This document shows, in pieces, positions 2,765-63,972 of a DNA stretch of 64,000 bases; position 1 is the stretch's first letter, and each line of letters starts with the position of its first letter. Under the pieces are notes generated by a model. It did not search any database. It was not told the origin of the DNA and saw only the letters and a program-made list of their open reading frames with translations. The DNA is taken from contig JBBELK010001493.1 in assembly GCA_037783545.1 (NCBI GenBank), positions 58,454-122,453 on the forward strand. The letters are read 5' to 3'. Both the position numbers and the translations under genes were made by a program. Origin of the DNA: Henricia sp. BOLD:AAB3569. Taxonomy: Eukaryota; Echinodermata; Asteroidea; Spinulosida; Echinasteridae.

Positions 2765-2906
2765 ATGGCGACCAGTCATCGTCGTAGTCGAGGTGATCGC
2801 CATACGTCCAATCTGAGCTCTACATCCGGCATACTAGAGTACAGCTACTCCCATGATGCAAATGGTGCTGAAGCTCGGAATGGAGCTGGATACACCTTCC
2901 GCAAAT
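2765..2906 (+). CDS. SESTD1: Exon 1: candidate N-terminal coding exon
   Basis: ATG in good context (CAAGATGG) opens 47 codons plus 1 base before a strong donor (AAAT|GTGAGT). The Ser/Arg-rich peptide (MATSHRRSRGD...) is not recognised in vertebrate SESTD1. It splices in phase (1) to exon 2. A short overlapping upstream frame starts at the ATG at 2748 and ends at 2816. If exon 1 is not used, translation would start at 11383 in exon 2. Confidence 0.6.
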
Positions 2907-8900: not shown

Positions 8901-11900
8901 TGCACAGGATTATACTTATGCAATACTTTTACACTGGTAGAAATGAGCCATTGAGCTACAGCTGGAATTGACAGTTGCAACCTTGCACCCTCAGCCTGAA
9001 AAAAAATATCCTAACTCTATCCGGAGTAGTGAATACAATGCAGTGTTGTACCTTGATGTTCATACCTGGCTTACAAACTTTACAATGAACGATTTTATTC
9101 TGGGCCAAGCGAAGAATTGCCAGAGTCAAAGCTCATCCATCATTGATTAGGTTGTATTGAAATTTTGCTTTGACTGTTGGTGACATGTACTTTTCTATGA
9201 ACCCAAGGCCTTGGAAATAGATGACTTTTTGTCAAATTCCCGTAAACATTTGCTGCAGTACAGTATGTAAAAATAGAAAATAGCTGTCATTAATAAATTA
9301 CAGCCAACAATTGCTGTCCCCAGTTTGAACTTTTGTTATTGATTTTTATTTCTTGTAACGTATGCTTCACATATATCTCGGTACAATCACAGGTAATTAC
9401 AATACTGTATATTATTATATAAAATGAAGCTTTTGCGGATACCGTGCGTTTCTGATATACTTTGCAGCACAGAGCCTCAATCTGATGCGCGTGCACGCAG
9501 GGCACACCTATCACACCTATCACACGCGTACACGCGCGTCGTGCATCGAGTGAATGGATTGCGCGTGTGTGCTACGCGTACAAGAGCACAGTAACAAAAA
9601 AATACTGTACAACAATAACAAAAGCACATGCAGTTGTAAACTGAAGTTTTCAACACCAAACAGACAAAAATCTCGAGGAAATCTTTCAAAACAAAGCTTC
9701 ATTTTATATAACAATATAAATACTCGTCATTGTATTTATATAACAATAAATACCGAGTCATGAAAATACCGAACTGGCCTTCGGCTTCTTCGGTATTTTC
9801 ATGACTCGTGCGGTATATTCTCATATCACCCTCAAAGCCATCCAATAATTACCAATTTCAGACTACAGTCTGAAGCTTATAGTATTGTACATGTAGTACA
9901 CATACGTTTTAATACGTTTTAATAAATTGCCCGCTGCAATCAGTTTGTACTGTCCATATCAACCTTTATCCGACAGTGTTTGTGTTAAATACTGAGCATA
10001 TAATGTATGACATGCTTTTTGCAGCTCATTTGCCTAACAACCAAAGAACGTTTTAAAGGTCATATAGTTGAGCTGATTTGAATAGCTGTCTGTGCATGTA
10101 GAGATGGTTGGTCTGATAACTGTGGCAGTTAGCTCCATATAAAACATCTTATCAGCACAAACACACTCCATGAACATCAATCTTGGTTTTTAGTGGTGTT
10201 ATTTATGAACTACATGGTAGACATTGCTGTATTACAGTGCAGACATTGCTGTATTGCAGTGCAGTCCTGCTACACTTGAACCGTACTGCATTTCAAATCA
10301 AGTTAAAATTTGAAAAGAAAACAAGATGAATTGCTAGCCATATTTTGATATATTAACACTCTTTTCCCAAATAAAATTGATTTTCAAAATATTCTTGAAT
10401 TAAAAAAAATAAGAATAGCACACAATACAATATCAATTTGGCCAATACTTGGTGTTTTACAGAGGTTTACAATAGCAGACAAGATTTCCAGTGGTTAATG
10501 AAGAATAGCTATTTTAGTGACTCGTTTGTCATTCATGCAGAAATTACATGTACATGTATGTATGATGCCAAATCACCATGGAAATAAAATAACCAAACAT
10601 GGGATGACGGGCTCGAAATACCCACTGGACCGGTGGACCGAGGCCAGTAATTTAAGCCTTGGTCTAGTGCTTTCTCTACCATACTAGACCAGTGGTCCAG
10701 TGCATTTTTAAATTAACGAACAGTAAATCCACGTTCCTTGTGGCTTTGGTCTTGTAAAAATAGCGTCGGTCCAGTAAATGATTTAAGCTACTAACCCTGT
10801 GGTCTTGCAGATTTTTTCATGAAATTCGAGCCCTGGATGATAGAAAATCATCTGGTCCTCCTTGGGATTCAACCTCGAGACCAGCCAGATGGTCTACCAG
10901 CTGAGCTATCTCCTTAAGTTTTCTCCAAGAACCCAACTTTTATCTTGGTGTATGCATGCGCAATTAAGCAATGTAACAAATGCAGAGTTTTAATGATTGT
11001 AAAGTAAATTGTCACCGTCATCACGAAGAGACACAAGTGGCCAAATATCGCATTTTCATCGATTTTGAGATTTTGGCCGAAAACGACTTAGTACTGCACG
11101 GCCTACAACCTGGTGAGGTCCATTTGTCGAAAATATAACGAGAAGTCTAATTACTGTAATCAGCCACGTGGAAAAAATTCACAAAAGTCCCATTTTCCGA
11201 GAGAGAAAGATTACTTTGCCCAGCCGGGATTCAAACCTGAGCTTACCACTACCAGAACTTGTTTCAGTAAACCTTTCAAATTTGTTTTTAGGCGCAATTT
11301 AAATTAAATTAAATTGCTCCCAGATAGTTTATCCAGATTTGTCAATTAATGTCTTTTTCTTTCATTTGACGCAGATCCAGTCATGCAAGCTGTGCAGATC
11401 GCAGACCTCCTCAAGAGAAAGATTGCTTTCACCTCAGGTAACTGAACAACTAATTCCTGGCCCCCAAATTCCTAAAATACCCGCCCAAAAGGAAGTCGTA
11501 GATTGTGAATGGGAAATGAATTGAGGAAGTAGTTAGAGTAGCGGTAGTTTGTGATGCCTGGAAAATGTAATCAAATTGACATATTAGTTTGCAATGGCCT
11601 GTCAACATGTGATTGTTTAGTGATGTCCAATTCCGTGTATCCCACGTATCCATTTATTGTATAATTAATAATATCTCAAAGTCTCACCCCTTCACAGTTA
11701 TCGTAGCAGCATTATTTGCAGCACTTATACAACAAAGTTGAATTAAACCTATATTATAATTGTTATGTCCACTGTTAATTTTGCAAACAAAATGTTTATT
11801 GTCGTGGAAGTAATGATTAATTAATTCTCAACCCCATTAGTTAAATGTATATGAAATTTGTTTGCAAACAGAGAGTATTTAAACTACACAAATATACATT

Positions 11901-26313: not shown

Positions 26314-26465
26314 GGAGGTTAAGATGCACGTAAAATGCGAACGTGAATTTGAAATGATTTGATCACTTGGTCATTATTCTGAGGAGATCTTAGAACAGAT
26401 AAAAACCAAAAACCCCACATCTATGACTCGGGTTCGAATCCCGATAAGGCCCAAACAAAGCATAG

Positions 26466-28295: not shown

Positions 28296-28379
28296 ATGGC
28301 TTCTAAGCTTACACCAACAGCCGTTAGTACGGTCGCTGTGCGATCTGGCGAGAATCGGATTATACTTGCTGTCTTAAGA
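28296..28379 (+). CDS. CCDC141: CCDC141-like first coding exon (alternative to exons 1-16)
   Basis: ATG (AAACATGG) opens 28 codons ending at a consensus donor (AAGA|GTAAGT), phase 0, compatible with exon 17. The peptide TAVSTVAVRSGENRIILAVL aligns with TTVSTVAVQAGDSRIVIAVL at the N-terminus of recalled human CCDC141. Joined to exon 17, the next residues STEWIQVKV continue the match (human CGKWVQLQL). No acceptor precedes it, so it must be a first exon with its own promoter. Confidence 0.85.
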
Positions 28380-52300: not shown

Positions 52301-55300
52301 ACAGGTACAGGGATTAATCCGGAACCTAGGGACTCCTTCCCTGAACATTTGCTGTTAGCTTCAAATTGTTCAAAGTGACGATGTAGTGGCACAAAACACA
52401 GTTCATTTGCTGGATGCATCCCAGCTATGGCGGATGTGCAGGGAAGGATTCCCTAGTTACTCGATGTGTCTATAAACTGCTTTCTGATGACGTCTAGCAT
52501 CCACATGGCCCGAGTGCTCACCAGCAAAATTAGTGAGAAAAGCATGTCACAACTACTAACCTTGCTGTTGGTAGTTGTTACTTGCCCCCAACCATTGCCA
52601 ACCAAAGATAATATAGTGCCATAGGCACAAGATAAACCACTATTGCAAATTTAATTTAATCAAGGCACCATTTCAGTAAGCAAACAAGACACGCCTCATA
52701 CCCGCTCGAGGTGTAATCTGTGTTGTGGCAAATAGTTACAGCAGCATCTGCAAGAGGCATGTCAAACAGACATGAGGCATGTCTAGTTTGCTTACTAAAA
52801 TGGCGCCTTTGTGTACTACGCAAGCCAGGGTAGAGTGGTCTATCTTGTGCCTATGGCGCTATATCATCTTTGCCTTCAACCCACCCATGTCTCCCCCTCC
52901 ATCTCCCCACAGTCAACCCCTAAATCCCAAGCATTCCAGGAACATCTAACAACAGCTGCTGACTTGCTAGCATTTGACTTGGTTCCATCTGACGATGAGG
53001 ATCTTGAAATTCACCAACCACTGGAGGTTTGTAGAAGTGCCTTGCAGATGAAATGAACATTTTAATTCATGACACTATAACATTTTTGTACATGCAATAA
53101 TTTCCCATGACAGTTTTGTGTGTAAACCATTGTGTTTAGGGTGAGGAACAACAGGCACCAACAGCCAGAAAATTTACCGCATAATTTCCATGTTACGAGG
53201 GTATAATTAAGTGAACATTGGTAAAACTCATTTGAATCACAATTAATACGGTTGATATCATTGTAAATCTTACAAAGAATATACTCAATAATTTATGACG
53301 TCAGTGTCTTTACATCAGTGCTTTCCTTTGGGGAAACAGAAGGTCATGTTCAGCTTCTCCCATAGCTAAATATTGATGCCAAACCGTGACATCATTAGGT
53401 TTTGGATCTATACCAGTTTTTAATCAGAATACAGAACAGGGCCGGGTCCCAAATACACAAACATTGCAAACGTTTGCCAACAACTGGTACTCGGCTTTCC
53501 AAGGACGAATGCACAAAACCACTGGCAACGTTTGTGTAAAGCGGGCCTCCCACTGTGCGATTTTTGCCACGAATTTCCTACGAATTGGCACGATTATCGG
53601 AGACTGCCTATAGACTCTACACACTATCGTACCCAATCGTAGGAAATTTGTGACAAAAATCGCACAGTGGGAGGCCCGCTTAAGTGGAACCATGGAGGAA
53701 GGAAACAAACACAGCCCTGGTTTGAGCCAGTTTATCCATAAAACATTTTAAAACAGAAATGTCCAGTTCATTTTAACAATATTAAGATCAGACATAACCC
53801 ACTATCCATTGTTGCATGGCCATACCTTTCCCTATGTTAGTATATTATTTAGTATTTCCTCCCTTCCCAGCATTCCCAGCCTATAGACCTAGAGGAATCC
53901 TTATCTAAGTCTCAAGTCCAGCCTGCATACGAGTTCAACCTGAGTCAACTAGATGCACCTATGGAACAGGTACGTTGTCGTAGAAGTCACTGAACTCTCT
54001 CAATATCTGATTTGTCCATCATTCTTTTCCCCCCCCCATTTTTTTTCTTCTCCTTTTTTGAAATGGAATGTAAAGCACATTGGCACTTCGTGTGAAATGC
54101 ACTATACAAAAACACAAATACAAAAAATTAAATGAGTTTTTTTTCTATGGCTTGTTAGTAGAAATATTAGTTAAACCCAAGTAATACAATTGAAGACTTG
54201 AATTGCACTGCAATATTCATGCCGTTGTCAGTGTTTGTTTTGTATAACTTAATACAGTCAAACCTGGGTAATGAGGGCACTATTAAAGGCAGAGGCTCGT
54301 CAATGCGCGCGTGAGGCCAAATTAGTGCCATGAAATATGCAGCTCCACAGCAAAGGCATAGAGCTGCGTATTTCGTGGCACGAATTTGGCCTCGCGCATT
54401 GACGAGCCTCTGCCTTTAATACAACATTTTGCTTATGAAAACTCCTTGTTATTTATTTTTTCATGCCTGATGATACAAGGTTTTTTATAACAAGGCAGTT
54501 TGTCCCAAAATACCTGTTATTAACGAGGTTTAACCGCAATTAAAATGACACACTAATTCTTTTAACTTTGTAAATGAAACTTTGGAGACTATCACTAAAA
54601 TCTGATGGATGTTACTTGCATGTTTTGAAGCACTTTAACCTCTTTAATATAGCAACTAAAACCACATGTATTTAATCAGTACAGCATCCAAAACCACTTT
54701 AATAATTTTAGAGATTTTTCAGTAGGACTAAATACTGGATCATTACGATACTAAGCATGCCGTTTGTACTAACTCACATACTAACGTGTCTGTTAAACCC
54801 CACCCAGACACCCCTTCCTGTAGATGACGAACCTTTGCCCTCAGATGATGAACACCAGTCATCATCCCAATCAGACTCTTACACGGAACCTGAAGATGAT
54901 TTGGGTACCGTTGTAATGGAAATGGTTGAACCAGTCGAGGTAAATGTCTTGTTGATGTCTTACATACATGATGGCTTAAATACTGGATCATTATGATACT
55001 AAGCATGCCGTTTGTACTAACTCACATACTAACGTGTCTGTTAAACCCCACCCAGACACCCCTTCCTGTAGATGACGAACCTTTGCCCTCAGATGATGAA
55101 CACCAGTCATCATCCCAATCAGACTCTTACACGGAACCTGAAGATGATTTGGGTACCGTTGTAAAGGAAATGGTTGAACCAGTCGAGGTAAATGTCTTGT
55201 TGATGGCTTACAGTGTTTTCATTGTCTTCTGATTTTTGGACCTGGAAGCGGCATAAAACTTGACTTCTACATTTCAGACAGTGCCACCTCAGTGACAGGT

Positions 55301-58300
55301 GGTATCCAGAACTGCAAGTCATCAGTGATCATCCCGACTCTAGAATTCTCTCCCTGGTACTATCATGGATACCAAATGGCCTGAGAAATTCAGACAATAT
55401 CTGACCAGTTATTATTTTTAGCTTGGTGTAAGATTCATTTTGTGTGTCACCACAATCTTTGGAATATACATACAAAAATATTCATGCCACATTGCTCTCA
55501 TCACCTGGCTTAATTATTGCATTCTTGTCCTTGTATCTCTGTTTGCATACCAGTACAAACCAATCCATATCAAGCAGTTCGGTAAACTCGTTGACCCAGA
55601 ACCTGTGGAAGAATTGAAACCCAAGGAGATACAGCCATACTTCACTCGCTTCACGCGAGACTGCACTATCAAGGAGGGAAGGTTTGCTGGTAAGTTGTGT
55701 CTTGGGGGAGGGGACGGTGTTTGTTTTAGATGGATTCAAATCAATATCTGTGCAAATCTGAGGTGCACTCGTAGATCCTGATCACGATCTGTGATCCCAG
55801 AAATCCTGATCGAAAGGCGGTTGAGTAAAAGATCCAAAATGGCATTTTGTGAGTAAACTGTGTCATTTAAATTCTATAAAAATAATGTTATGGGTGAAGT
55901 TTTGTTCAGAAATTTGACAAATGAAGTAAATAAATTGCTTTTATGATGTAACTTGAGATCGTTGTTGATACCAGTTTTGTGTCTGCACAGTGAAATTTTG
56001 GGATCTGGAATTAGGTTTGCGACAAAATGTGACCTTTGACGCAACAGGCTGTACATATTTAAATTTATTATCTCATCTGAATTCCTACTAAAATGAGTTT
56101 CTTCTCCTGATCCACCAGCGTTTGACTGCGTTGTGAAGGGCGAGCCTGAACCCGATGTCTTCTGGGAGAAAGACGGCGTCCAGCTTGAGGAAACCATTGA
56201 GGTCAACATGGAGTTTGGGGATGATGATTCATGCACTCTCAACTTTACTCCTGCTAAGCCTCACCTGGCAGGGACCTATTTATGCAAGGCTGTCAACACA
56301 GCAGGGGAAGCAACATGCTCTGCCAAACTCACTGTTATTCGTAAGTCATGAAAACTATACACAGAGCTTTTTGGGCATTTATAGTATCCCGTTAATAGCA
56401 GGAAACTTTGAATAAACTAAGTAAGGTTTGAGAGCTTGCATGGTAAATAAAACATTAAGTAATGGGTTTACGGTGGCACCATGTATTGAATATAACTCTT
56501 TTGGAGAAGTGTGGCTCTGAAAAGAGCCAGTTGGTTTCTCGACGTTTCAAACAGTATGCTCTGTTCGTCATCGGGAGAATAAACTCCTGTTTGTTTTAGT
56601 ACCTCACTCAACGGAATATTTCTATGTCGGGCGAGAACCACTTTGGTATCAAAACACAGTACTGTTAACAAGAACTATTAAACATCGTCCAGTTGTATGA
56701 AGGGTTTCACGTTGTTACAGGTCACTGAACTCTCTTGTTTGTCCTCCAGAAGGGGGGGAGAGAATAATAGAGCCACGTGCAGGAAGATCCAGAATATTTT
56801 TTAGGGGGTTGCAGGGGCTGGGGAGGGGTGGGGGTGGGGGGGGGGGGGGGGGGGGGGAAGGAAGGGGGGAAGGAAGGGGGGAAGGGGGGAAGGGGGGAAG
56901 GGGGCTGAGAGTTAAAGATTTACCTGGACTACTCCCATATACTATGGGAAGGGGAGTGCGTTCTTCCCTCTCTCTTTTCCCCACACCTCCATGTTTTTTT
57001 TACAATCTGCCAATGAATGTTTTAGGTGTAGTGGTGATTGTATTGTTCTCTTCCTCCTTCTGAAGGACTAATATGAAGGAGTTAGTAACTTGTAACAATG
57101 TGAAACGGCTATATTGCCACCAGAGTTAAAAGAGTGGGGACATTGTCGCATGATCAGAGGCTAAATATTCTTAGAAAAGTTGCCGTTTTGCCTTCGAAAT
57201 TGCCAAGTAATTTCTGGAATCGGCAAGCTATTACTGGGAATCGAATCGAATCGAATCTAGATGAAAGGGAATCGATTTCTACTGGAATCGCGATTCCCAT
57301 TCCTAAAGTTCCGGCGTGGAATCGCCCAAGCCTATTTGGCTGAGGCAGAAATATTTACGTTTGCAAAACTGGTTGAACATGGAATACTGTTTTTGATTGT
57401 GTGTCATTTGTCATTATAATCTAGCTGACCATAAGATTGTCCCAGAGAGGGAAACAGTAGTATCATCAGGTCGTATTGATCTTGCATCAAAGAAGGCTCC
57501 ACGTTTCACATGGAATCCTGGCAATCAGATCGTGGATGAGGGTAAACCGTTCACACTGACTGTGGAGGTGGAATCTGAACCTACTGCTACTGTTACATGG
57601 TAGGAAACAATCATAGAACGGACAACAAGAGTATTTTGTTATCATTTATCTTCAAGAAAATTTGAGCAGTTCATGTGCACATATAGCCAACCTTGGAACA
57701 TATCGGTCATTCCTAAAATTAGAAATTCCTGAATGTTTGGTGTCCCAGTCACATCTGACACTTTGTGCTTCTAAGGTGTTGAAAAAATAATTAGTTACAG
57801 GGATTTTTTTAGGATACTTGGTTAAAAATTACTTTCTGTTAGAATTGACGGCATTTATTTATGAGTAAGTATGAATTGTTTACATATGGGAAAACACACA
57901 AATCCGATAACCGCCGGTACCGACAGCGGTACTGGCGGTATTTTTAGCGGTACCCCCCTGCACGAAAGGAGAAAGATTGTGGTTTCTTCCTTCGTTTCTT
58001 CTTTTTTCCTTCTCTGTCGGTACCGGCAGTTAGATTTCTGTGTCTTCCCTAACATCAAATGCAGTTCAGAGTGTCCGAGTTATGTTGGACATTGTAAATT
58101 GCCGCTTTGGATTAAAATTCTCAATGCAGTTTGTATGCAAACGAACTCCAAGGCCAAGTTTGCACCAAGCAATGCACATCAAGCCAAATCAAAACTCCGA
58201 ACTCACTTATCAGCAGGTGACTTTGCTATTGTTTCCCGCAGGACTAAAGATGGCGAGAAACTCGGTGATGATTTCTATCGTTTCAAGCAAGATGACAACA

Positions 58301-61300
58301 TGCACTCTATGATCATTGATGATGTATTACCAGAAGATGAAGGCACGTACATTGCAACAGCTACCAATCCTGTTGGCAGAGCAGAGTGTACTATTCAGAT
58401 CACTGTCAATGGTATGACCAATGATCAGCTTTCATTTCTATATTATTAATGTTTGAACAAAAATTATACTCTCTAATTCCATTCATTGCTTCTTTAATTA
58501 CCCTCGTACTGGGCTCATTTTCATAAAACATGTTAGCACTCATTTTTAATTAAGCAGTGCTCTCTCCATTTTATAAAACTGTTTAAGCACTAGCAAACCA
58601 AACTGCATGCTAACCAGTGTTTAGATTGGTCAGGAGATAAGAATCTTAATTCTGTATCTTATTACCTACATCAGAGGCGGGTTCATCCCCTCACTTCACA
58701 AGCACCCTCCAAGACCTTCAAGTCATCGAAGGTGACCGCCTGGAGCTTCAGTGCCGTCTTACTGGCGACCCATCCCCAACCACGAGTTGGTACAAGGACG
58801 GTGAATGCATCGATAATCATCCCGACTATATCGTGAGCAGAGATAAACAAGGAGTGTGTACTCTAAGGATTGATGAAATATTCAAGGATGATGCGGGCAG
58901 GTTTACATGCCGAGCCAAGAATGTCTTTGGCCAAGCTGAGACCACGTCTAAGATCACTGTGACAGGTCAGTTGAACTAAAGGTGGAATCACACTGTCATT
59001 TTGTAACACATTAACACGCATAAATTTGGCTTGAATCACCTTGAAATTTTTTAGTGATTTTTACCAATTTCCGTCCTTACCCATGTGGAATTTCAACAAG
59101 ACCCCTTTCTGTTTTAAGAGTTAGCTTAAGACAGTTTTGTAACCACTCTAATTGCCTTCATATTGTTGTTCACTTCAGCTTTTGATGCAGACCGTCCCCC
59201 AGAGTTCATCTCTAAGCTCCAGTTGACATCACCCCTTCAGGAGGGTCGACCATGTCGCCTACAGGCCAAGATTGCAGCCAAACCACCACCCAATGTCTCA
59301 TGGTACAAAGATGGTAAAGTCCTGAGAAACAAGCCACGATACAAGACTTCATTTGTCCAAGATATCGCCAGTTTGGATATTCCAGATGTCCTGCCTGAGG
59401 ATGCTGGAGTGTATGAGTGTGTGGCGTCGAATGCTGTGGGAACCTCCAAATGTAAAGTGGAGTTGATGGTGCCAGGTATGTTAATACACAGCCCCAATTT
59501 TCAATTACAAAACTTTGCAACGTTTGTTTTTCGTAACTATCCAGGTATTACCTCTGCTGATTATCAATTTAAACTTGTCCAAACTCAGTAAATGTTTGTA
59601 AACTTCTCCCAGTCTGCAAATACTGGGATAATTTTTAGGTATTTAAAACAATTTTGGCACCACCAAGATTAAACGGTAAAACTTTAGTGACTTGCTTGCA
59701 AAGTTTGGTTTGCATAACTATCCAGGTTTTATCTCTGTTGGTGAATATCAATTCAAATTTGTCCAAACTCAGTAAATGTTTGCAAATACTGGGATCATTT
59801 TTAGGTATTAAAAAGCAGTTTGGGTGCCACCAAAGAAATGCAACTTCTGCGTTTCGTCTTGGGGAAAAAAGTTGACATGTATGTCGATCTAGCCTTCCTA
59901 AATAGACTTTGAGATCAGATATTTGTTTTCAAATCAAATCTAGTTTTTTGCACAAACAAATATACCGATGTCGACTCCAAAGTGAAAAATGCCCTCTTAG
60001 AAAATCTCTTGGTGGCGCTATGTATTGCAAAACGCCTGAATTCAAGTCACTAGACACAGCATTGACTTTAATTGTTGATGATCTTTTGCCACCTTTGTTT
60101 CTCAGCATTTGACAAAGCACCAGACTTTGCCACCAAACTTCAACTCTCTGAACCACTAAAGGAAGGACGACCATGCCACATTGAATGCCAGATATCAGCC
60201 AAACCAACCCCAACGGTCTCCTGGTACAAAGATGGCGTTCCTATCCAAGATGGCCGCAAGTATCGTACCTCATTCGTCAAAGGCGTTGCATGTTTGGACT
60301 TTGATAGCTCTACACCAGACGATGCTGGGGTGTATGAATGCATTGCTACTAATCCCCTGGGTACTGCTAAGACAACCATTGAGGTTATGGTTCCAGGTAC
60401 GTCAATTGATCTGTTTACTGCTTCTTCAACAGTGTTGTATTTGAGTCCAGCACAAGTCTATCACAAGTCCAGAGCCGGTAAAATCACAAGTCTGTGACAC
60501 GTCCCACACAAGTCCCACACAAGTCCCGCACAAGTCCCGCACAAGTCCCGCACAAGTCCCGCACCAAGTCCCGCACCAAGTCCCGCACCAAGTCCCGCAC
60601 CAAGTCCCGCACCAAGTCCCGCACCAAGTCCCGCAACAAGTCCCGCAACAAGTCCCGCAACAAGTCCCGCAACAAGTCCCGCAACAAGTCCCGCAACAAG
60701 TCCCGCAACAAGTCCCGCAACAAGTCCCGCAACAAGTCCCGCAACAAGTCCCGCAACAAGTCCCGCAACAAGTCCCGCAACAAGTCCCGCAACAAGTCCC
60801 GCAACAAGTCCCGCAACAAGTCCCGCAACAAGTCCCGCAACAAGTCCCGCAACAAGTCCCGCAACAAGTCCCGCAACAAGTCCCGCAACAAGTCCCGCAA
60901 CAAGTCCCGCAACAAGTCCCGCAACAAGTCCCGCAACAAGTCCCGCAACAAGTCCCGCAACAAGTCCCGCAACAAGTCCCGCAACAAGTCCCGCAACAAG
61001 TCCCGCAACAAGTCCCGCAACAAGTCCCGCAACAAGTCCCGCAACAAGTCCCGCAACAAGTCCCGCAACAAGTCCCGCAACAAGTCCCGCAACAAGTCCC
61101 GCAACAAGTCCCGCAACAAGTCCCGCAACAAGTCCCGCAACAAGTCCCGCAACAAGTCCCGCAACAAGTCCCGCAACAAGTCCCGCAACAAGTCCCGCAA
61201 CAAGTCCCGCAACAAGTCCCGCAACAAGTCCCGCAACAAGTCCCGCAACAAGTCCCGCAACAAGTCCCGCAACAAGTCCCGCAACAAGTCCCGCAACAAG

Positions 61301-63972
61301 TCCCGCAACAAGTCCCGCAACAAGTCCCGCAACAAGTCCCGCAACAAGTCCCGCAACAAGTCCCGCAACAAGTCCCGCAACAAGTCCCGCAACAAGTCCC
61401 GCAACAAGTCCCGCAACAAGTCCCGCAACAAGTCCCGCAACAAGTCCCGCAACAAGTCCCGCAACAAGTCCCGCAACAAGTCCCGCAACAAGTCCCGCAA
61501 CAAGTCCCGCAACAAGTCCCGCAACAAGTCCCGCAACAAGTCCCGCAACAAGTCCCGCAACAAGTCCCGCAACAAGTCCCGCAACAAGTCCCGCAACAAG
61601 TCCCGCAACAAGTCCCGCAACAAGTCCCGCAACAAGTCCCGCAACAAGTCCCGCACCAAGTCCCGCACCAAGTCCCGCACCAAGTCCCGCACCAAGTCCC
61701 GCACCAAGTCCCGCACCAAGTCCCGCACCAAGTCCCGCACCAAGTCCCGCACCAAGTCCCGCACCAAGTCCCGCACCAAGTCCCGCACCAAGTCCCGCAC
61801 CAAGTCCCGCACCAAGTCCCGCACCAAGTCCCGCACCAAGTCCCGCACCAAGTCCCGCACCAAGTCCCGCACCAAGTCCCGCACCAAGTCCCGCACCAAG
61901 TCCCGCACCAAGTCCCGCACCAAGTCCCGCACCAAGTCCCGCACCAAGTCCCGCACCAAGTCCCGCACCAAGTCCCGCACCAAGTCCCGCACCAAGTCCC
62001 GCACCAAGTCCCGCACCAAGTCCCGCACCAAGTCCCGCACCAAGTCCCGCACCAAGTCCCGCACCAAGTCCCGCACCAAGTCCCGCACCAAGTCCCGCAC
62101 CAAGTCCCGCACCAAGTCCCGCACCAAGTCCCGCACCAAGTCCCGCACCAAGTCCCGCACCAAGTCCCGCACCAAGTCCCGCACCAAGTCCCGCACCAAG
62201 TCCCGCACCAAGTCCCGCACCAAGTCCCGCACCAAGTCCCGCACCAAGTCCCGCACCAAGTCCCGCACCAAGTCCCGCACCAAGTCCCGCACCAAGTCCC
62301 GCACCAAGTCCCGCACCAAGTCCCGCACCAAGTCCCGCACCAAGTCCCGCACCAAGTCCCGCACCAAGTCCCGCACCAAGTCCCGCACCAAGTCCCGCAC
62401 CAAGTCCCGCACCAAGTCCCGCACCAAGTCCCGCACCAAGTCCCGCACCAAGTCCCGCACCAAGTCCCGCACCAAGTCCCGCAACAAGTCCCGCAACAAG
62501 TCCCGCAACAAGTCCCGCAACAAGTCCCGCAACAAGTCCCGCAACAAGTCCCGCAACAAGTCCCGCAACAAGTCCCGCAACAAGTCCCGCAACAAGTCCC
62601 GCAACAAGTCCCGCAACAAGTCCCGCAACAAGTCCCGCAACAAGTCCCGCAACAAGTCCCGCAACAAGTCCCGCAACAAGTCCCGCAACAAGTCCCGCAA
62701 CAAGTCCCGCAACAAGTCCCGCAACAAGTCCCGCAACAAGTCCCGCAACAAGTCCCGCAACAAGTCCCGCAACAAGTCCCGCAACAAGTCCCGCAACAAG
62801 TCCCGCAACAAGTCCCGCAACAAGTCCCGCAACAAGTCCCGCAACAAGTCCCGCAACAAGTCCCGCAACAAGTCCCGCAACAAGTCCCGCAACAAGTCCC
62901 GCAACAAGTCCCGCAACAAGTCCCGCAACAAGTCCCGCAACAAGTCCCGCACCAAGTCCCGCACCAAGTCCCGCACCAAGTCCCGCACCATTTATAGAAT
63001 GACCCATATTTCGGTTACCATGACAGCTATTTATGTTGCAGTGCTTGAAAAAAACAACCTTATCTTTTCTGAAAATCTACACTTTTTGTAGGTTTTTTTT
63101 GGTAAGATTTTGTTTCTCAAAGTAAAAGAATTAATACGTAAAACTGTTGCAAACTGCTTACCAAGCGGCGGGACCTGGAGTAAAATCACACTATTAAATT
63201 AGTGGCCTCACATTCCGATCCTAGCAGAATCTTCCTCAAAGGCGAAAGTTATAAGAAATTTGGGATTGATGTCTTCTTAACAGCTTACGACAAGCCCAAG
63301 GCCCCAGAATTTATCACTACGAGTCAAGTGTCGGAGCCATTGTATGTGGGACGACCCTATCACATCGAGTGTCCAGTCATGGCCCAACCAACACCAACCA
63401 TCACATGGTACAAGGACGGTCAAGCCATCGGGAATCAACCTAGATATCGGACAAGCTTCATCAAGGGTGTGGCTCGTCTTGATATTGATGAACCAAGACC
63501 TGAGGATGCTGGAGTGTATGAATGTGTTGCTTCCAACCCGCTGGGAACGGCCACCACCACCATTGAAGTCATGGTGCCGGGTAGGTACTCTTATTGTTTA
63601 GTTTGTTGTTGATTTTGCACTTAATTCAAGATTAGCATGAAAATAATTTTTGTGAAAATAATTGTTGTGTTGCAGGGTATGACAAGCCCAAGGCTCCAGA
63701 GTTTATCTCCACGAGTCAAGTGGCTGAGCCACTGTATAAGGGACGACCCTACCATATCGAGTGTCCAGTCACAGCCCAACCAACACCAACCATCACATGG
63801 TACAAGGACGGTCAAGCCATCGGGAATCAACCTAGATATCGGACAAGCTTCATCAAGGATGTGGCTCATCTTGATATTGATGAACCAAGACCCGAGGATG
63901 CTGGAGTGTATGAATGTGTTGCTTCCAACCCGCTGGGGACGGCCACCACAACCATTGAAGTCATGGTGCCGG
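28296..63972 (+). CDS. CCDC141: CCDC141 orthologue running into a titin-like Ig array (spliced, open at the right edge)
   Basis: Spliced model: first exon 28296-28379 and then exons 17-48, about 2,069 codons before the window ends. Order: short N-terminus (STVAVRSGENRIILAVLR), spectrin-like/coiled-coil rod (exons 17-35), acidic Pro-rich linker (exons 36-39), seven Ig domains (exons 40-48). N-terminal STVAVRSGENRIILAVL matches recalled human CCDC141 STVAVQAGDSRIVIAVL; exon 20 LQDRRRALEELW matches LQDRRRQLDKYL; the exon 34/35 LYG junction and the VPSD acidic linker also have counterparts. Vertebrate CCDC141 (about 1,450 residues) ends after one Ig domain; here phase-1 Ig exons continue as in titin, the next gene in vertebrates. 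CCDC141/CAMDI is a centrosome-associated protein of neuronal migration that is also expressed in heart; that role is transferred. A sarcomeric role for this longer product is inference. Exon 16 may also splice into exon 17. Confidence 0.82.
28380..32250 (+). other. Intron after the CCDC141-like first exon
   Basis: 3.9 kb. Holds a repeat (about 29868-30130) seen inverted at 40275-40425, an imperfect hairpin near 29360-29455, a repeat related to 40437-40590 at 31300-31440, and G-rich stretches at 29908-29950. A short conserved-looking hairpin repeat with ACCAAACTTGGG / CCCAAGTTTGG lies at 30842-30908. No exon recognised. Confidence 0.55.
31300..31440 (+). repeat. Dispersed repeat, family E, copy 1
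   Basis: Shares GTAGTCACTCACCGCA and ATTGTTGATTTAACAATA with 40437-40590. Inverted segments (GGTTGGATTTAAC / GTTAAATCCAACA in the other copy) suggest a small foldback element. Confidence 0.55.
32251..32373 (+). CDS. CCDC141: Exon 17: CCDC141 rod, 41-codon spectrin half
   Basis: Starts STEWIQVKVEEMKPQ with the spectrin helix-A tryptophan and ends EMLKQLA. Residues 1046-1086. Acceptor GCGTTTTAG, donor GCG|GTAAGT, phase 0 to 0. Can join either exon 16 or the first exon at 28296 in frame. Confidence 0.93.
32755..32845 (+). repeat. G-rich purine tract
   Basis: Many runs of three to six G separated by short spacers (GTGGGGAAAAGGGGGAG, GGGTGGGGGGAGGGGTTGGG). It could form a G-quadruplex on the + strand (and nascent RNA). 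Confidence 0.6.
34034..34400. mobile_element. MITE-like element, family D
   Basis: TTAAAGGAGCGTGACCAGAT at the left and the inverted ATCTGGTCATGCTCCTT...TTAA at the right, consistent with TTAA targets. A related truncated copy is at 21970-22260. Confidence 0.7.
36986..37297 (+). pseudogene. Two 156-bp degenerate copies of the 5' part of exon 18
   Basis: Copies at 36986-37141 and 37142-37297 each carry the exon start (TCCAAGCAACAGCACATCAA), about 27 matching codons, then GATGTCTAA giving an in-frame stop where the real exon reads GATGTCTAT. Each ends in a full acceptor (CTTGTTTGCAG). Neither has a donor. They lie head to tail with the real exon at exactly 156-base spacing. Confidence 0.88.
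37298..37489 (+). CDS. CCDC141: Exon 18: CCDC141 rod, 64-codon spectrin half
   Basis: SKQQHINSLLTQADFLVSTQ... then SLGEAWKDLNQQLEERRRLL, matching human TLGEAWAALVSMLERRTELL. Residues 1087-1150. Donor GAG|GTAAGT, phase 0 to 0. Third and only intact copy of the 156-bp series. Confidence 0.93.
37975..38083 (+). CDS. CCDC141: Exon 19: CCDC141 rod
   Basis: FSDKLDKANAQFRSPDLP... ending LMEDHHKIRE (human LLQLHEHHTKE). 36 codons plus 1, phase 0 to 1; the size and phase mirror exon 11. Confidence 0.9.
38160..38400 (+). mobile_element. SINE-like repeat (tRNA-related)
   Basis: GGTCGAGTGGTC (A-box-like) and TTTGGTTCGAATCC (B-box-like) are followed by TCCTTGGGTAAGACACTTTG, the tail motif of the repeats at 2941 and 20216. 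The spacing suggests a Ser/Leu-type tRNA head. Confidence 0.5.
38744..38988 (+). CDS. CCDC141: Exon 20: CCDC141 rod
   Basis: ILTSSMHTMNLGKDLIEHL... then VLEDLQDRRRALEELWNKQ, matching human LLELLQDRRRQLDKYLKQQ; ends LDQEVNQ (human DQQENQ). 81 codons, phase 1 to 0, mirroring exon 12. Confidence 0.93.
39060..39325 (-). mobile_element. SINE-like repeat, inverted copy of 2941-3231
   Basis: Reverse complement contains GAATGCCACAATCTAACTGC, GCCAGGCAGCCACCTAGTTG and GGGCAAGACACTTAATCTC, as in the copy at 2941. Confidence 0.65.
39473..39592 (+). CDS. CCDC141: Exon 21: CCDC141 rod, 40-codon spectrin half
   Basis: ISDWFKTRGEDYLNKKDVG... ending DFERSAQ; helix-A tryptophan at W4. Human counterpart reads VTCWFQKTIRNL. 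Donor CAA|GTCAGT, phase 0 to 0. Confidence 0.92.
40071..40262 (+). CDS. CCDC141: Exon 22: CCDC141 rod, 64-codon spectrin half
   Basis: DTQANIHRLRQTAEQISHSI...RLANRGRMLQATMDFYKNAE. Phase 0 to 0. Size and end motif (LL/ML...FY) match exons 10, 14 and 18. Confidence 0.92.
40275..40425 (-). repeat. Dispersed repeat, inverted relative to 29868-30130
   Basis: Shares, inverted, GTTGTCAACATTTTCACAGT, a C-rich CCCCCCCTCCCTCCCC tract and CAACATTTTACAGTGCAT with the stretch at about 29940-30100. Confidence 0.55.
40437..40590 (+). repeat. Dispersed repeat, family E, copy 2
   Basis: Same sequence family as 31300-31440: AGTAGTCACTCACCGCA and ATTGTTGATTTAACAATA; TTAAATCCAAC / GTTGGATTTAA form a hairpin. 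Confidence 0.55.
40658..40864 (+). CDS. CCDC141: Exon 23: CCDC141 rod
   Basis: AQTYLSQVEIQLSKLPNE... IKDKLNLLE, 69 codons, phase 0 to 0. It sits in the same position as exon 15 of the SESTD1 part (the exon after the 41/64, 37/81, 41/64 series), and AEPIIQEGHTLLERV resembles GKALLDRMV. Confidence 0.9.
41340..41552 (+). CDS. CCDC141: Exon 24: CCDC141 rod
   Basis: SQSECLQSECSPEAQYRSTL, then VIVKWLVNVADAFLSAN and FQDGHQTLMGDML: a helix-A start with tryptophan. 71 codons, phase 0 to 0; acceptor TTGCATTAG. Confidence 0.88.
41973..42040 (+). mobile_element. tRNA-derived SINE head, copy 1
   Basis: GCTCAGCTGGTAGAGCGTCT (A-box) and GAGTTCGAAT (B-box) in tRNA-like spacing. A cognate repeat unit, inverted and with better stems, is at 43991-44063; both are near a GAGAGAAAAATTGGGT motif. 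Confidence 0.6.
42144..42341 (+). CDS. CCDC141: Exon 25: CCDC141 rod
   Basis: DKTKQVDKVFKTSAELMPSL...IILIKFHKLTKQ. 66 codons, phase 0 to 0; FHKLTKQ repeats the FHRLTEQ end of exon 10, typical of the second spectrin half. Confidence 0.92.
42503..42555 (+). repeat. 15-bp tandem repeat
   Basis: About three and a half units of AAGTGGTGTTTGGGC with single-base changes, in intron 25. Confidence 0.7.
42747..42920 (+). CDS. CCDC141: Exon 26: CCDC141 rod
   Basis: LTNGMENIEEQLNCYISMDA...NLREKWNNVVEIHVQFNSTG. 58 codons, phase 0 to 0, coiled-coil spectrin type (human has LRQKWNDMKPQFQQL in a similar place). Confidence 0.9.
43529..43708 (+). CDS. CCDC141: Exon 27: CCDC141 rod
   Basis: IRNDPELDITSSKLYVSQVM...RLNSGQLFLSKWQKFVQDAR. 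60 codons, phase 0 to 0; amphipathic helical. Confidence 0.9.
43991..44063 (-). mobile_element. tRNA-derived SINE head, copy 2
   Basis: On the minus strand GCCTTATAGCTCAGCTGGTA...GGGTTCGAATCCTGATAAGG: the acceptor ends pair (GCCTTAT / ATAAGGC) and A and B boxes are intact, but the spacing after the acceptor stem is one base short and the anticodon stem is imperfect. More likely a SINE or tRNA relic than a functional tRNA. Confidence 0.5.
44342..44467 (+). CDS. CCDC141: Exon 28: CCDC141 rod, 42-codon spectrin half
   Basis: TMDKAHRTETEYYPQVASDL...FEDIAK; ends like exon 13 (FEDTAK). Acceptor CCACCCCAG, phase 0 to 0. Confidence 0.9.
44669..44783 (+). pseudogene. Truncated 115-bp upstream duplicate of the start of exon 29
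   Basis: After a CATGACAG acceptor, the sequence repeats the first 17 codons of exon 29 (SVGDELKDCIETADSLG) with two silent changes, then breaks into a second copy of intron sequence (AATCATGCATATTCATGTCA). No donor follows. Confidence 0.85.
44784..44972 (+). CDS. CCDC141: Exon 29: CCDC141 rod, 63-codon spectrin half
   Basis: SVGDELKDCIETADSLGQKG...KYRTLLHMTVGFYDDINK. Phase 0 to 0, donor AAG|GTATGT. The intact member of the 115-bp duplication. Confidence 0.92.
45730..45906 (+). CDS. CCDC141: Exon 30: CCDC141 rod
   Basis: LNQAMDETERELQVPFTPTK...KKKLDDMYDKAADQGDKL. 59 codons, phase 0 to 0, strongly coiled-coil. Confidence 0.92.
46165..46314 (+). CDS. CCDC141: Exon 31: CCDC141 rod
   Basis: DPVSVSKADIELAVHKTGMR...EQQKKKVNNSLGLAELQQHK. 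50 codons, phase 0 to 0; Lys/Gln-rich helix. Confidence 0.9.
46449..46510 (+). mobile_element. tRNA-derived SINE head, copy 3
   Basis: CTAGCTGGTAGAGCATCTTC and TCTCGGGTTCGAATC give A and B boxes; stems are degenerate and the flanks resemble copies 1 and 2. Confidence 0.5.
46596..46737. mobile_element. Foldback element, family A, copy 2
   Basis: TTAAAGATGCAGGCTCGTAA at the left, inverted TGATGAGCCTGCGTCTTTAA at the right; the arms continue through GAGGAACAAATT...GCCACGAAATT. Confidence 0.75.
46904..47026 (+). CDS. CCDC141: Exon 32: CCDC141 rod, 41-codon spectrin half
   Basis: LTVNLSKAQKELKGMQGKYG then DTEDTANTNLRRLDDWKSRI. Acceptor TTTGCAG, donor GAG|GTAGGT, phase 0 to 0. Its 3' two-thirds and donor are the template for the tandem array that follows. 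Confidence 0.92.
47027..48870 (+). repeat. Array of twelve 150/152-bp units carrying exon 32 copies and donors
   Basis: Each unit holds intron sequence (GTAGGTTTAT...GGGTTTAGCTAGAGGAG), a shortened exon 32 copy (starting CTGACTG, lacking 27 exon bases) and the donor GAG|GTAGG. The GGCATGCAAGG mark falls at 47095, 47247, 47397, 47549, 47701, 47853, 48003, 48153, 48303, 48453, 48603 and 48755. Units of 152 bp keep the exon frame (CTGACTGTGAAAGG); units of 150 bp have lost TG and are frameshifted to a stop. The acceptor side is purine-rich and weak. Confidence 0.92.
49129..49320 (+). CDS. CCDC141: Exon 33: CCDC141 rod, 64-codon spectrin half
   Basis: PLEDELKSYISSATAILKQN...HREKLLLAIEFHKLYKT. 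Phase 0 to 0; completes the repeat begun by exon 32. Acceptor TTGCAG, donor ACG|GTAAGT. Confidence 0.93.
49721..49904 (+). CDS. CCDC141: Exon 34: CCDC141 rod (possible alternative terminal exon)
   Basis: TVEWQNKGNGLLLAIGRRIP...LQKLNELAQELYG; human CCDC141 has LAQHLYG here. Phase 0 to 1, donor TATG|GTAAGG. If the donor is not used, the frame continues for 28 Lys/Thr-rich codons to a TAA at 49988-49990, with AATAAA motifs about 95 bases later. Confidence 0.9.
50083..50092 (+). terminator. Candidate intronic poly(A) signal (AATAAATAAA)
   Basis: Two overlapping AATAAA hexamers lie 93 bases after the stop that would end an unspliced exon 34. Together they could define a short rod-only isoform without Ig domains. 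Confidence 0.4.
50349..50590 (+). CDS. CCDC141: Exon 35: end of CCDC141 rod
   Basis: PDSPTFVSQLDNIHLANKRL...FHLADRLQNEEKKKKK. 80 codons, phase 1 to 0; the size and phase mirror exons 12 and 20. Ends in a charged single helix (KLEERWKPKETPHP) leading to the linker. Confidence 0.92.
51045..51117 (+). tRNA. tRNA-like sequence, Asn (GTT) type; probably a pseudogene
   Basis: 73 bases that fold as a tRNA: acceptor stem GGCTTCA / TGGAGCC with a final A, D stem GCTC / GGGC, anticodon stem TCTGC / GCAGA around ACGTTAA, giving GTT at the anticodon position. Against function: the base before the anticodon is C rather than T, and the T stem (CGCGG / CCCGG) has two mismatches. No CCA is encoded after it. 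It may be a tRNA relic or a SINE head. Confidence 0.4.
51195..51542. mobile_element. Tc1/mariner-like MITE
   Basis: CAGTTGAAGTCAGAAGTATA at the left, inverted TATACTTCTGACTTCAACTG at the right, flanked by TA on both sides (51193-51194 and 51543-51544). The ends resemble the CAGTTGAAGTC ends of Tc1-type elements. No transposase frame. Another foldback element sits inside. Confidence 0.8.
51375..51488. mobile_element. Foldback element nested in the Tc1-like MITE
   Basis: CTGGGGCGCGTTCAATAGC at the left and GCTATTGAACGCGCCCCAG at the right are exact inverted copies, and the arms extend through an ACGTA-containing stretch. Confidence 0.8.
51703..51837 (+). CDS. CCDC141: Exon 36: linker
   Basis: LSKPLVVEKPLAKTEHKPDF...EKIVKETIGHVQ. 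45 codons, phase 0 to 0; no fold predicted by eye. Confidence 0.88.
51838..52912 (+). other. Intron 36
   Basis: AT-rich; part (51915-52010) resembles the GTTGTCAACATTT repeat seen near 40290. Nothing else recognised. Confidence 0.5.
52913..53026 (+). CDS. CCDC141: Exon 37: acidic linker
   Basis: STPKSQAFQEHLTTAADLLA then FDLVPSDDEDLEIHQPLE. 38 codons, phase 0 to 0. VPSD plus acidic residues recalls the PLVPSDMEVEEP linker of vertebrate CCDC141. Confidence 0.88.
53538..53682. mobile_element. Foldback element with about 50-bp arms
   Basis: AAGCGGGCCTCCCACTGTGC at the left and inverted GCACAGTGGGAGGCCCGCTT at the right; the arms extend through GATTTTTG and AATTTCCTACGA. Non-coding. Confidence 0.78.
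53871..53969 (+). CDS. CCDC141: Exon 38: linker
   Basis: HSQPIDLEESLSKSQVQPAY...LSQLDAPMEQ, 33 codons, phase 0 to 0. A second acceptor 9 bases downstream (CATTCCCAG, exon start 53880) would drop HSQ in frame. Confidence 0.85.
54255..54538. mobile_element. pogo-like element interrupted by a family-A foldback
   Basis: The left end CAGTCAAACCTGGGTAATG and the right end ATTAACGAGGTTTAACCGC are inverted relatives with pogo/Tigger character. The family-A element lies inside at 54282-54420. Confidence 0.5.
54282..54420. mobile_element. Foldback element, family A, copy 3 (nested)
   Basis: ATTAAAGGCAGAGGCTCGTC at the left and inverted GACGAGCCTCTGCCTTTAAT at the right form near-perfect arms. The right half keeps ATTTCGTGGCACGAATTTGG. 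Confidence 0.82.
54808..54939 (+). CDS. CCDC141: Exon 39A: acidic Pro-rich linker
   Basis: TPLPVDDEPLPSDDEHQSSS...VVMEMVEPVE. 44 codons, phase 0 to 0, full acceptor (CACCCAG) and donor (GAG|GTAAAT). One of two near-identical exons 248 bases apart. Confidence 0.88.
55056..55187 (+). CDS. CCDC141: Exon 39B: duplicate acidic linker exon
   Basis: Same 44 codons as exon 39A with one change (VVM to VVK, ATG to AAG). Splice sites intact. Both exons can be included in frame, giving an 88-residue acidic tract, or used alternatively. Confidence 0.88.
55554..55689 (+). CDS. CCDC141: Exon 40: linker and start of Ig domain 1
   Basis: YKPIHIKQFGKLVDPEPVEE then PYFTRFTRDCTIKEGRFA, the A and B strand region of an I-set Ig domain. 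Phase 0 to 1, donor GCTG|GTAAGT. Confidence 0.9.
56119..56340 (+). CDS. CCDC141: Exon 41: Ig domain 1
   Basis: FDCVVKGEPEPDVFWEKDG ... HLAGTYLCKAVNTAGEA: both disulphide cysteines and the core tryptophan are present. I-set type. Phase 1 to 1. Confidence 0.93.
56808..56908 (+). repeat. Poly-G / GGAAGG purine tract
   Basis: A run of more than 20 G is followed by GGAAGG and GGGGGGAAG repeats: a pure purine strand able to form triplex or G-quadruplex structures, and a likely sequencing and assembly trouble spot. Confidence 0.8.
57425..57599 (+). CDS. CCDC141: Exon 42: linker and first half of Ig domain 2
   Basis: PDHKIVPERETVVSSGRIDL, then KAPRFTWNPGNQIVDEGKPF and TLTVEVESEPTATVTW. Phase 1 to 2; the donor splits the core Trp codon (TG|G). 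The B-strand cysteine is absent (Leu/Val), as in the CCDC141 Ig domain (TLEVEVTGFPEPTLTW). Confidence 0.92.
57600..58241 (+). other. Intron 42
   Basis: Contains a small inverted repeat (57908-58033; ACCGCCGGTACCGACAG and CTGTCGGTACCGGC). No exon recognised. Confidence 0.55.
58242..58411 (+). CDS. CCDC141: Exon 43: second half of Ig domain 2
   Basis: TKDGEKLGDDFYRFKQDDNM...LPEDEGTYIATATNPVGRAE. The F-strand cysteine is replaced by Ala (GTYIATATN). PEDxGTY..ATNxVGRA is close to the titin Z2 domain and to the CCDC141 Ig domain. Phase 2 to 1. Confidence 0.92.
58675..58965 (+). CDS. Exon 44: Ig domain 3
   Basis: PHFTSTLQDLQVIEGDRLEL...CRLTGDPSPTTSWYKDGECI...DDAGRFTCRAKNVFGQAE. A complete I-set domain in one symmetric phase 1-1 exon. 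First domain beyond what vertebrate CCDC141 has; titin-like. Confidence 0.93.
59179..59475 (+). CDS. Exon 45: Ig domain 4
   Basis: PPEFISKLQLTSPLQEGRPC, then PPPNVSWYKDGKVL and EDAGVYECVASNAVGTSK. The B-strand cysteine is Ala (LQAKI) although a cysteine stands just before it (RPCRL). Phase 1-1 symmetric exon. Confidence 0.93.
60106..60396 (+). CDS. Exon 46: Ig domain 5
   Basis: APDFATKLQLSEPLKEGRPC, HIECQISAKPTPTVSWYKDG and DDAGVYECIATNPLGTAK. Phase 1-1. Closely related to exons 45, 47 and 48, so the array grew by exon duplication. Confidence 0.93.
60397..63283 (+). other. Intron 46
   Basis: 2.9 kb, nearly all of it the 12-bp satellite; the last 290 bases are unique-looking and lead to the exon 47 acceptor (CTTAACAG). 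A piece at 63185-63230 resembles sequence near 44540-44585. Confidence 0.7.
60554..62990. repeat. 12-bp satellite array, about 200 copies
   Basis: Head-to-tail AACAAGTCCCGC and ACCAAGTCCCGC units, which differ at one base and occur in homogeneous blocks: C-type (about 60554-60628), A-type (to about 61652), C-type (to about 62477), A-type (to about 62947), C-type (to 62990). It is preceded by looser CACAAGTCC units from 60450. Because 12 is a multiple of 3 and no unit contains a stop, open frames of more than 830 codons appear in three frames; these are not genes. Confidence 0.95.
63284..63580 (+). CDS. Exon 47: Ig domain 6
   Basis: YDKPKAPEFITTSQVSEPLY, HIECPVMAQPTPTITWYKDG and EDAGVYECVASNPLGTAT. 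Phase 1-1, donor CCGG|GTAGGT. Almost identical to exon 48. Confidence 0.93.
63676..63972 (+). CDS. Exon 48: Ig domain 7 (last in window)
   Basis: YDKPKAPEFISTSQVAEPLY, HIECPVTAQPTPTITWYKDG and EDAGVYECVASNPLGTAT. Phase 1-1; donor GTAAGT at 63973 shows that the gene continues past the window. Only 95 bases separate it from exon 47. Confidence 0.93.

What the first reader, a model, noticed from the sequence alone, without database searches (positions are those of the whole stretch)
2765..63972. SESTD1, CCDC141 and titin-like Ig exons lie head to tail in one invertebrate locus
Exons 2-16 are colinear with SESTD1, exon 28296 and exons 17-43 with CCDC141, and exons 44-48 are titin-type Ig exons. 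In human the three genes are neighbours with the same order and direction (recalled). The arrangement is therefore probably ancient, and the vertebrate trio may descend from one long gene or a tightly linked cluster. A shared SEC14-spectrin-Ig product would link phosphoinositide binding to a sarcomere-type Ig chain.
Basis: partly seen in the sequence, partly recalled or inferred. Interest (0 to 1): 0.9.

Follow-up and report, generated by a model that had tools for sequence, protein, structure and literature searches.

The report
SESTD1-CCDC141-Ig gene row (connectitin)
A stretch of animal DNA, probably from an invertebrate, carries in one row the kinds of genes that sit in front of titin in humans, which adds one more case to a recently published picture of how the giant muscle spring protein arose rather than a new discovery.

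Summary
The anatomy is largely real. On the + strand lie a SESTD1-type gene (SEC14 plus spectrin; 15 coding exons, 11383-26274) and a CCDC141-type gene with its own ATG exon (28296), modelled as one open chain of 35 exons to the window's end. The chain ends in seven I-set Ig domains; the last five are single exons with phase 1 on both sides. Titin chains head the PDB lists. The start at 2765 is not supported; homology begins at 11383. CCDC141 identity rests on a human sequence recalled from memory. The idea is published: Hanashima et al. 2025 (PMC12198301) call SESTD1-CCDC141-TTN 'connectitin', with CG15822-zormin-sls in Drosophila and a connectitin also in cnidarians and placozoans. Zormin also has several Ig domains, so Ig3-Ig7 may be a CCDC141/zormin tail and not titin; the window cannot decide. 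Added here: matching exon lengths and phases between the SESTD1 and CCDC141 spectrin parts, and a phase-compatible splice that could join them (suggestive only). The species is unknown; sequence beyond the window could not be reached.

The parts
11383..26274 (+). SESTD1-like gene; coding exons 11383-11437 (ATG), 12723-12834, 14896-14986, 15765-15878, 16307-16423, 16961-17135, 17669-17898, 19047-19169, 19612-19803, 20025-20139, 21231-21472, 22998-23120, 23985-24176, 24753-24946, 25365-26274
   Evidence: Open, phase-consistent chain of 995 aa; PF24915 111.7 bits, CRAL_TRIO_2 49.7 bits; kalirin SEC14 structure 155.6 bits
11383..16423 (+). SEC14 (CRAL-TRIO) domain of the SESTD1-like gene (five exons, 163 codons)
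   Evidence: CRAL_TRIO_2 residues 25-156; PDB 7ur2 kalirin residues 3-163
19047..24176 (+). SESTD1 spectrin cassette, exons 8-13: 123, 192, 115 (phase 0 to 1), 242 (1 to 0), 123, 192 nt
   Evidence: Lengths and phases; run of six with CCDC141 exons 2-7, 0 of 20,000 permutations
25365..26274 (+). last identified SESTD1 exon: end of the part alignable to recalled human SESTD1, then a low-complexity tail, ending KLKEFEALVHE at donor gtgagt, phase 0; unspliced reading stops at 26311-26313
28296..28379 (+). first coding exon (ATG) of the CCDC141-like gene; no AG within 28180-28296 gives an open frame into the ATG, so probably a first exon
   Evidence: N-terminus is in the alignment with recalled human CCDC141
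28296..58411 (+). CCDC141-like part; coding exons 28296-28379, 32251-32373, 37298-37489, 37975-38083, 38744-38988, 39473-39592, 40071-40262, 40658-40864, 41340-41552, 42144-42341, 42747-42920, 43308-43400 (doubtful: 43308 is not at an AG; 43314, in phase, is, score -0.6), 43529-43708, 44342-44467, 44784-44972, 45730-45906, 46165-46314, 46904-47026, 49129-49320, 49721-49904, 50349-50590, 51703-51837, 52940-53026, 53871-53969, 54808-54939, 55056-55187, 55554-55689, 56119-56340, 57425-57599, 58242-58411
   Evidence: Phase-consistent open chain; Spectrin PF00435 121.9 bits, 5 stretches; colinear with recalled human CCDC141
32251..40262 (+). CCDC141 spectrin cassette, exons 2-7: 123, 192, 109 (phase 0 to 1), 245 (1 to 0), 120, 192 nt
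55554..56340 (+). Ig1 (exons 55554-55689 and 56119-56340)
   Evidence: top two PDB entries titin
57425..58411 (+). Ig2 (exons 57425-57599 and 58242-58411), possible counterpart of human CCDC141's Ig
   Evidence: best window match of recalled CCDC141 Ig, 62.4 bits against 57.4 (Ig4) and 57.0 (Ig3); paired with it in the tree at 0.825; top PDB entry titin
58675..58965 (+). Ig3, single exon, phase 1 on both sides
59179..59475 (+). Ig4, single exon, phase 1 on both sides (acceptor 59191 also possible)
60106..60396 (+). Ig5, single exon, phase 1 on both sides
   Evidence: searched only within arrays
63284..63580 (+). Ig6, single exon, phase 1 on both sides
   Evidence: searched only within arrays
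63676..63972 (+). Ig7, single exon, phase 1 on both sides, 94% identical in protein to Ig6; ends at a donor, so the array probably goes on past the window

Best explanation
The window holds the 5' part of a connectitin-type locus of an animal that is probably an invertebrate (species not tested): a SESTD1-like unit (SEC14 domain and spectrin rod), a CCDC141/zormin-like unit (long spectrin rod, acidic linker, Ig), and a chain of muscle-type I-set Ig exons, all in one direction, descended from a TRIO/kalirin-like ancestral gene. Shown: order, direction, open reading chain, domain types, exon phases. Inferred: CCDC141 starts from an internal promoter near 28.3 kb; its transcript continues into Ig3-Ig7 (the Ig2-Ig3 gap is 263 nt and has no AATAAA/ATTAAA), giving a spectrin-Ig scaffold like fly zormin or a CCDC141-titin read-through; the SEC14-spectrin unit is made separately or, by a phase-0 splice from 26274 to 32251, as part of one long product. 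The product would act as a Z-disc or cytoskeletal scaffold in which the Ig chain gives length or elasticity and the spectrin and SEC14 parts dock it to actin or membrane; this function is by analogy only.
For: Gene models open and in phase. PF24915 111.7 bits, CRAL_TRIO_2, kalirin SEC14 structure. Colinearity with recalled SESTD1 and CCDC141, with shuffle and reversal controls. I-set 488 bits, 7 stretches. A titin chain heads the PDB list in all six Ig searches made: Ig3-7, Ig2, Ig1, Ig3, Ig4, Ig4-6. Shared exon lengths and phases. No polyA signal, and no ATG exon with a phase-1 donor of score 1 or more, inside 58412-58674. Published precedent.
Confidence: 0.85

Rival explanations
1. The Ig exons are the 5' end of a separate titin gene with its own promoter, so the window holds three units as in human.
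Against: The Ig2-Ig3 gap is 263 nt with no polyA signal; phases run straight through; zormin has several Ig domains.
Confidence: 0.3
2. SESTD1 and CCDC141 here are one transcription unit (single connectitin), with 28296 as an alternative first exon.
For: Last SESTD1 exon ends in a phase-0 donor of score 7.1 and CCDC141 exon 2 has a phase-0 acceptor of 4.4; the joined peptide KLKEFEALVHE|STEWI keeps the spectrin register, profile score 4.0, rank 5 of 134 donor ends of which ranks 1-3 are training members; a connectitin protein with SEC14, spectrin and Ig domains is published for cnidarians.
Against: All 7 training junctions score higher when left out (6.3-29.2), 8 of 979 other 16-mers of the SESTD1 model score as high, training members among them, and the candidate was picked by eye; eight candidate phase-0 terminal exons and six polyA signals lie between 26275 and 28295; the ATG exon suggests a separate product.
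Confidence: 0.35
3. The first unit is a TRIO/kalirin gene and not SESTD1.
For: SEC14 closer to recalled kalirin than to recalled SESTD1; kalirin is the top PDB entry.
Against: Whole protein: recalled SESTD1 346 bits, kalirin 265; spectrin part 228 against 138; PF24915 111.7 bits and no PF23323, which recalled kalirin hits at 133 bits; a CCDC141-type unit follows.
Confidence: 0.05
4. The shared exon cassette reflects tandem duplication of a SESTD1-type spectrin block to make CCDC141, rather than fission of one long spectrin gene.
For: Run of six exons with equal phases; CCDC141 residues 26-376 match recalled kalirin 304-630 (123 bits) better than 873-1171 (66 bits).
Against: Exon-by-exon scores are not highest in the run's own register (9.6 for SESTD1 exon 9 with CCDC141 exon 7, 4.7 with exon 3; exon 10 with 4 only 0.3), and the best BLASTP alignment of the two proteins is in another register (200-635 with 160-569, 70.9 bits, against 295-650 with 25-376, 56.6 bits); the cassette recurs at the end of the CCDC141 rod (46904-50590); recalled kalirin is itself periodic (123 bits between its parts). 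The paper argues for one ancestral gene. Odds lowered from 0.25 on this recheck.
Confidence: 0.2

Closest known systems
Connectitin (SESTD1-CCDC141-TTN of human; CG15822-zormin-sls of Drosophila; connectitin of cnidarians and placozoans), PMC12198301
   Same: Order, and SEC14 + spectrin + Ig content
   Different: Titin's further parts (and, in cnidarians, RhoGEF/PH/SH3 and kinases) would lie outside the window; species unknown; the CCDC141 unit is followed in phase by at least five further Ig exons
Drosophila zormin
   Same: CCDC141 counterpart with spectrin repeats and several Ig domains, 5' of sls
   Different: Not compared by sequence here; the paper gives it four spectrin repeats, the window unit has five that pass on their own in Pfam
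TRIO/kalirin
   Same: SEC14 followed by spectrin repeats; SEC14 47% identical to recalled kalirin
   Different: No PF23323 hit; no DH, PH or SH3 hit in the modelled exons

Membership tests
SESTD1 | SEC14 (CRAL-TRIO) N-terminal domain | tested here: met
   CRAL_TRIO_2 49.7 bits, kalirin SEC14 155.6 bits
SESTD1 | SESTD1-type spectrin repeat | tested here: met
   PF24915 111.7 bits; recalled SESTD1 159.9, recalled kalirin 34.3; the CCDC141 part also reaches 31.1
SESTD1 | SEC14 domain nearer SESTD1 than kalirin | tested here: not met
   41% against 47% identity to recalled sequences; the spectrin part favours SESTD1, 228 against 138 bits
CCDC141 | spectrin rod colinear with CCDC141 from the N-terminus | tested here: met
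   1,148 columns, 20% identity, E 2e-44 to a recalled sequence; not tested against a database record
CCDC141 | rod nearer CCDC141 than kalirin throughout | tested here: inconclusive
   whole rod 189 against 125 bits; residues 26-376 118 against 123; the rest 57 against 51
CCDC141 | C-terminal Ig domain | tested here: inconclusive
   Ig domains present; Ig2 is the nearest to the recalled CCDC141 Ig by a narrow margin
CCDC141 | a single Ig domain, as the paper gives for human | tested here: not met
   one Ig before Ig2 and five after it in phase; zormin has several
Titin/connectin | tandem I-set Ig domains in exons with phase 1 on both sides, most like titin among solved structures | tested here: met
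   the exon-phase rule for titin is recalled; scores favour long chains
Titin/connectin | FN3-Ig super-repeats, PEVK, kinase | not testable with these tools
Connectitin locus | SESTD1, CCDC141 and titin-type Ig units in that order | tested here: met
   with the reservations above; definition from PMC12198301
Connectitin, single-gene form | one transcript from SEC14 to Ig chain | tested here: inconclusive
   phase-compatible splice and helix register; no cDNA
TRIO/kalirin | kalirin-type spectrin repeat (PF23323) and DH-PH-SH3 | tested here: not met
   no PF23323 at E<=1 in the SESTD1 model nor at E<=0.001 in the CCDC141 or Ig parts; no DH, PH or SH3 listed there

The most novel reading that the evidence does not exclude
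If the animal is a bilaterian, it keeps one undivided connectitin gene: SESTD1's last exon splices in phase 0 straight to CCDC141 exon 2, rebuilding a spectrin helix, and the transcript runs on into the Ig chain, while the 28296 ATG exon is an internal promoter. It would be a living intermediate between the cnidarian protein and the three vertebrate genes.
Probability: 0.2. Interest if true: 0.6.

Novelty: new member of a known kind. Interest (0 to 1): 0.35.

Why it matters
It gives another animal with the SESTD1-CCDC141-Ig arrangement at exon resolution, including shared splice phases and a possible intermediate between a single ancestral gene and three separate ones. The exon cassette offers a marker, apart from sequence identity, for tracing how TRIO/kalirin-type spectrin rods became attached to the titin Ig chain.

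Tried and rejected
Rejected: the 2765 exon as the SESTD1 start (11383 carries the homology). Rejected: the VNTR copies at 47.1-48.9 kb as extra exons (in the stretch scanned before each of the 12 further copies the best acceptor scores -0.3, against 4.7 for the real exon). A SEC14 motif scan missed exon 14896, and a first phase-constrained search with thresholds found nothing; the same search without thresholds found it. The Ig-domain tree has low support. NCBIfam gave no match for the first 251 residues of the CCDC141 model. ARAGORN and Rfam gave only two tRNA matches. Structure prediction was not used. Some first-draft exon starts (41412, 51721) were not at an AG and were moved to 41340 and 51703; 43308 was not moved and is not at an AG.

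An earlier count said that, against the recalled CCDC141 Ig, Ig3 scored 57 and others under 47; one search shows Ig4 57.4 and Ig3 57.0.

Full report
What is there. Reading the + strand for stop-free frames bounded by splice-like sites gives two chains. The first starts at an ATG at 11383 and runs through 15 exons to a donor at 26274 (995 aa, no stop). The second starts at an ATG at 28296 and runs through 35 exons to a donor at 63972 (2,091 aa, no stop). The phases agree at every junction of the models. The splice matrices were approximate and written by hand. One exon is doubtful: 43308-43400 does not start at an AG (43314, in phase, does, score -0.6), and several donors are weak.

First unit. 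Pfam finds CRAL_TRIO_2 (residues 25-156, 49.7 bits) and Spectrin_SESTD1 PF24915 (111.7 bits, cut-off 27); the SEC14 part matches solved kalirin SEC14 at 155.6 bits. Against sequences recalled from memory the protein scores 346 bits with SESTD1 and 265 with kalirin. Recalled kalirin hits the kalirin-type model PF23323 at 133 bits and PF24915 at 34.3; recalled SESTD1 hits PF24915 at 159.9; the window protein hits PF24915 and not PF23323. Against this, the SEC14 domain alone is nearer to recalled kalirin (47%) than to recalled SESTD1 (41%), while the spectrin part favours SESTD1 (228 against 138 bits).

Second unit. The spectrin part has five stretches that pass on their own (121.9 bits in all) and is colinear with recalled human CCDC141 over 1,148 columns at 20% identity, E 2e-44. 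With residues 1-1147 as query the score is 189 bits, against 125 for recalled kalirin, 26.2 for reversed CCDC141 and at most 26.9 in 100 shuffles. The first three repeats alone (residues 26-376) score 118 bits with recalled CCDC141 and 123 with recalled kalirin, so the CCDC141 assignment rests on colinearity over the whole length. An acidic linker (51703-55187) follows, then seven I-set domains (488 bits, 7 stretches).

Where is the boundary to titin? Between Ig2 and Ig3 there are 263 nt with no AATAAA/ATTAAA and no ATG exon with a phase-1 donor of score 1 or more; such candidates lie in earlier introns. The simplest reading is that CCDC141's transcript continues into Ig3-Ig7. Fly zormin, given as the CCDC141 counterpart, has several Ig domains, so the chain need not be titin. 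Pfam lists no FN3 or kinase domain in the modelled exons; such exons, if any, would lie past the window.

Exon-level kinship. SESTD1 exons 8-13 (123, 192, 115, 242, 123, 192 nt) and CCDC141 exons 2-7 (123, 192, 109, 245, 120, 192 nt) agree within 6 nt and in phase over six consecutive exons. In 20,000 permutations of exon order none gave a run of six and one gave five; the tolerance of 6 nt was set after the lengths were seen, and only the first 22 exons of the second chain were used. Exon-by-exon alignment (z against 60 shuffles) in this register gives 7.9, 4.7, 0.3, 4.5, 6.6 and 4.4, but exons of the same type in other registers score as high or higher (9.6 for SESTD1 exon 9 with CCDC141 exon 7). 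BLASTP likewise aligns the two proteins best in another register (200-635 with 160-569, 70.9 bits) and second in this one (295-650 with 25-376, 56.6 bits). The cassette also recurs at the end of the CCDC141 rod (123, 192, 184, 242). So the two rods share a repeated exon cassette; whether by tandem duplication or by internal repetition in one ancestral rod is open, and the second is the simpler.

Could the first two units be one gene? The last SESTD1 exon ends with a phase-0 donor of score 7.1 and CCDC141 exon 2 has a phase-0 acceptor of 4.4. Joined, KLKEFEALVHE|STEWI keeps the register of other junctions such as LQLRTCERDADQ|AIAWL. A profile from seven such junctions (three from the window, four recalled from kalirin) scores it 4.0, rank 5 of 134 donor ends where ranks 1-3 are training members; the CCDC141 exon 1 end scores -15.7. 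All seven training junctions score higher when left out (6.3-29.2), and 8 of 979 other 16-mers of the SESTD1 model score as high, training members among them. I noticed the candidate by eye before testing, so this is only suggestive. No AG within 28180-28296 gives an open frame into the ATG of exon 28296, so it is probably a first exon.

What is known. Hanashima et al. 2025 (PMC12198301; abstract and sections 12, 13, 14 and 21 read, other passages by find) name SESTD1-CCDC141-TTN 'connectitin', propose TRIO/KALRN as its ancestral paralog, give CG15822-zormin-sls as the fly counterpart, describe a connectitin protein in cnidarians and placozoans, and cite transcripts that span CCDC141-TTN and zormin-sls. 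In the main text 'exon' occurs in one place, about the human gene, and 'intron' and 'phase' not at all; figures and supplements were not seen. A search for 'connectitin' lists only this paper, and one for SESTD1, CCDC141 and titin lists it and one gene-expression study (PMC5592927) (listings only). The CCDC141 search held 212 papers, of which I saw a list of 10, and zormin with sallimus 7, all listed. The finding is a new member of a known kind.

Limits. The species is unknown; if it is a cnidarian, the single-gene reading is close to what is published. The protein database was switched off, the genome search gave no answer in 12 tries, and the link to the human genes rests on recalled sequences plus Pfam and the PDB.

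Noticed in passing
46936-48867: About 13 tandem copies (150 or 152 nt, 97% matches) of the 3' part of spectrin exon 46904-47026 with its donor and the start of the intron; the further copies lack a good acceptor, so a VNTR spilling from an exon rather than extra exons.
   Followed up: partly
54729-55212: A 248-nt duplication (99% alike over 236 nt) that copies a whole 132-nt phase-0 exon of the acidic linker (54808-54939 and 55056-55187), giving two in-frame copies.
   Followed up: partly
36942-37377: 156-nt repeat, about 2.8 copies, covering the 5' part of spectrin exon 37298-37489 and its acceptor.
   Followed up: partly
60497-62987: 12-nt repeat, about 208 copies at 99%, in the Ig5-Ig6 intron; six long open frames (834-871 aa) run through it.
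   Followed up: no
25835-26049: 21-nt and 18-nt coding repeats in the SESTD1 low-complexity tail.
   Followed up: no
51044-51118 and 43989-44063: A tRNA-Asn gene on the + strand and a tRNA match without a clear anticodon on the - strand, both inside introns of the CCDC141 model.
   Followed up: no
63284-63580 and 63676-63972: Ig6 and Ig7 are 94% identical in protein, a recent Ig exon duplication at the window's edge.
   Followed up: partly
2765-2906: ATG-opened exon with a phase-1 donor (4.5) compatible with exon 12723; a possible alternative first exon of the SESTD1-like gene without homology support.
   Followed up: partly
28296-50590: The CCDC141 model hits Pfam DUF7799 (35.4 bits) and Spectrin_7 (48.4 bits), neither listed for recalled human CCDC141 at E<=0.01.
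   Followed up: no
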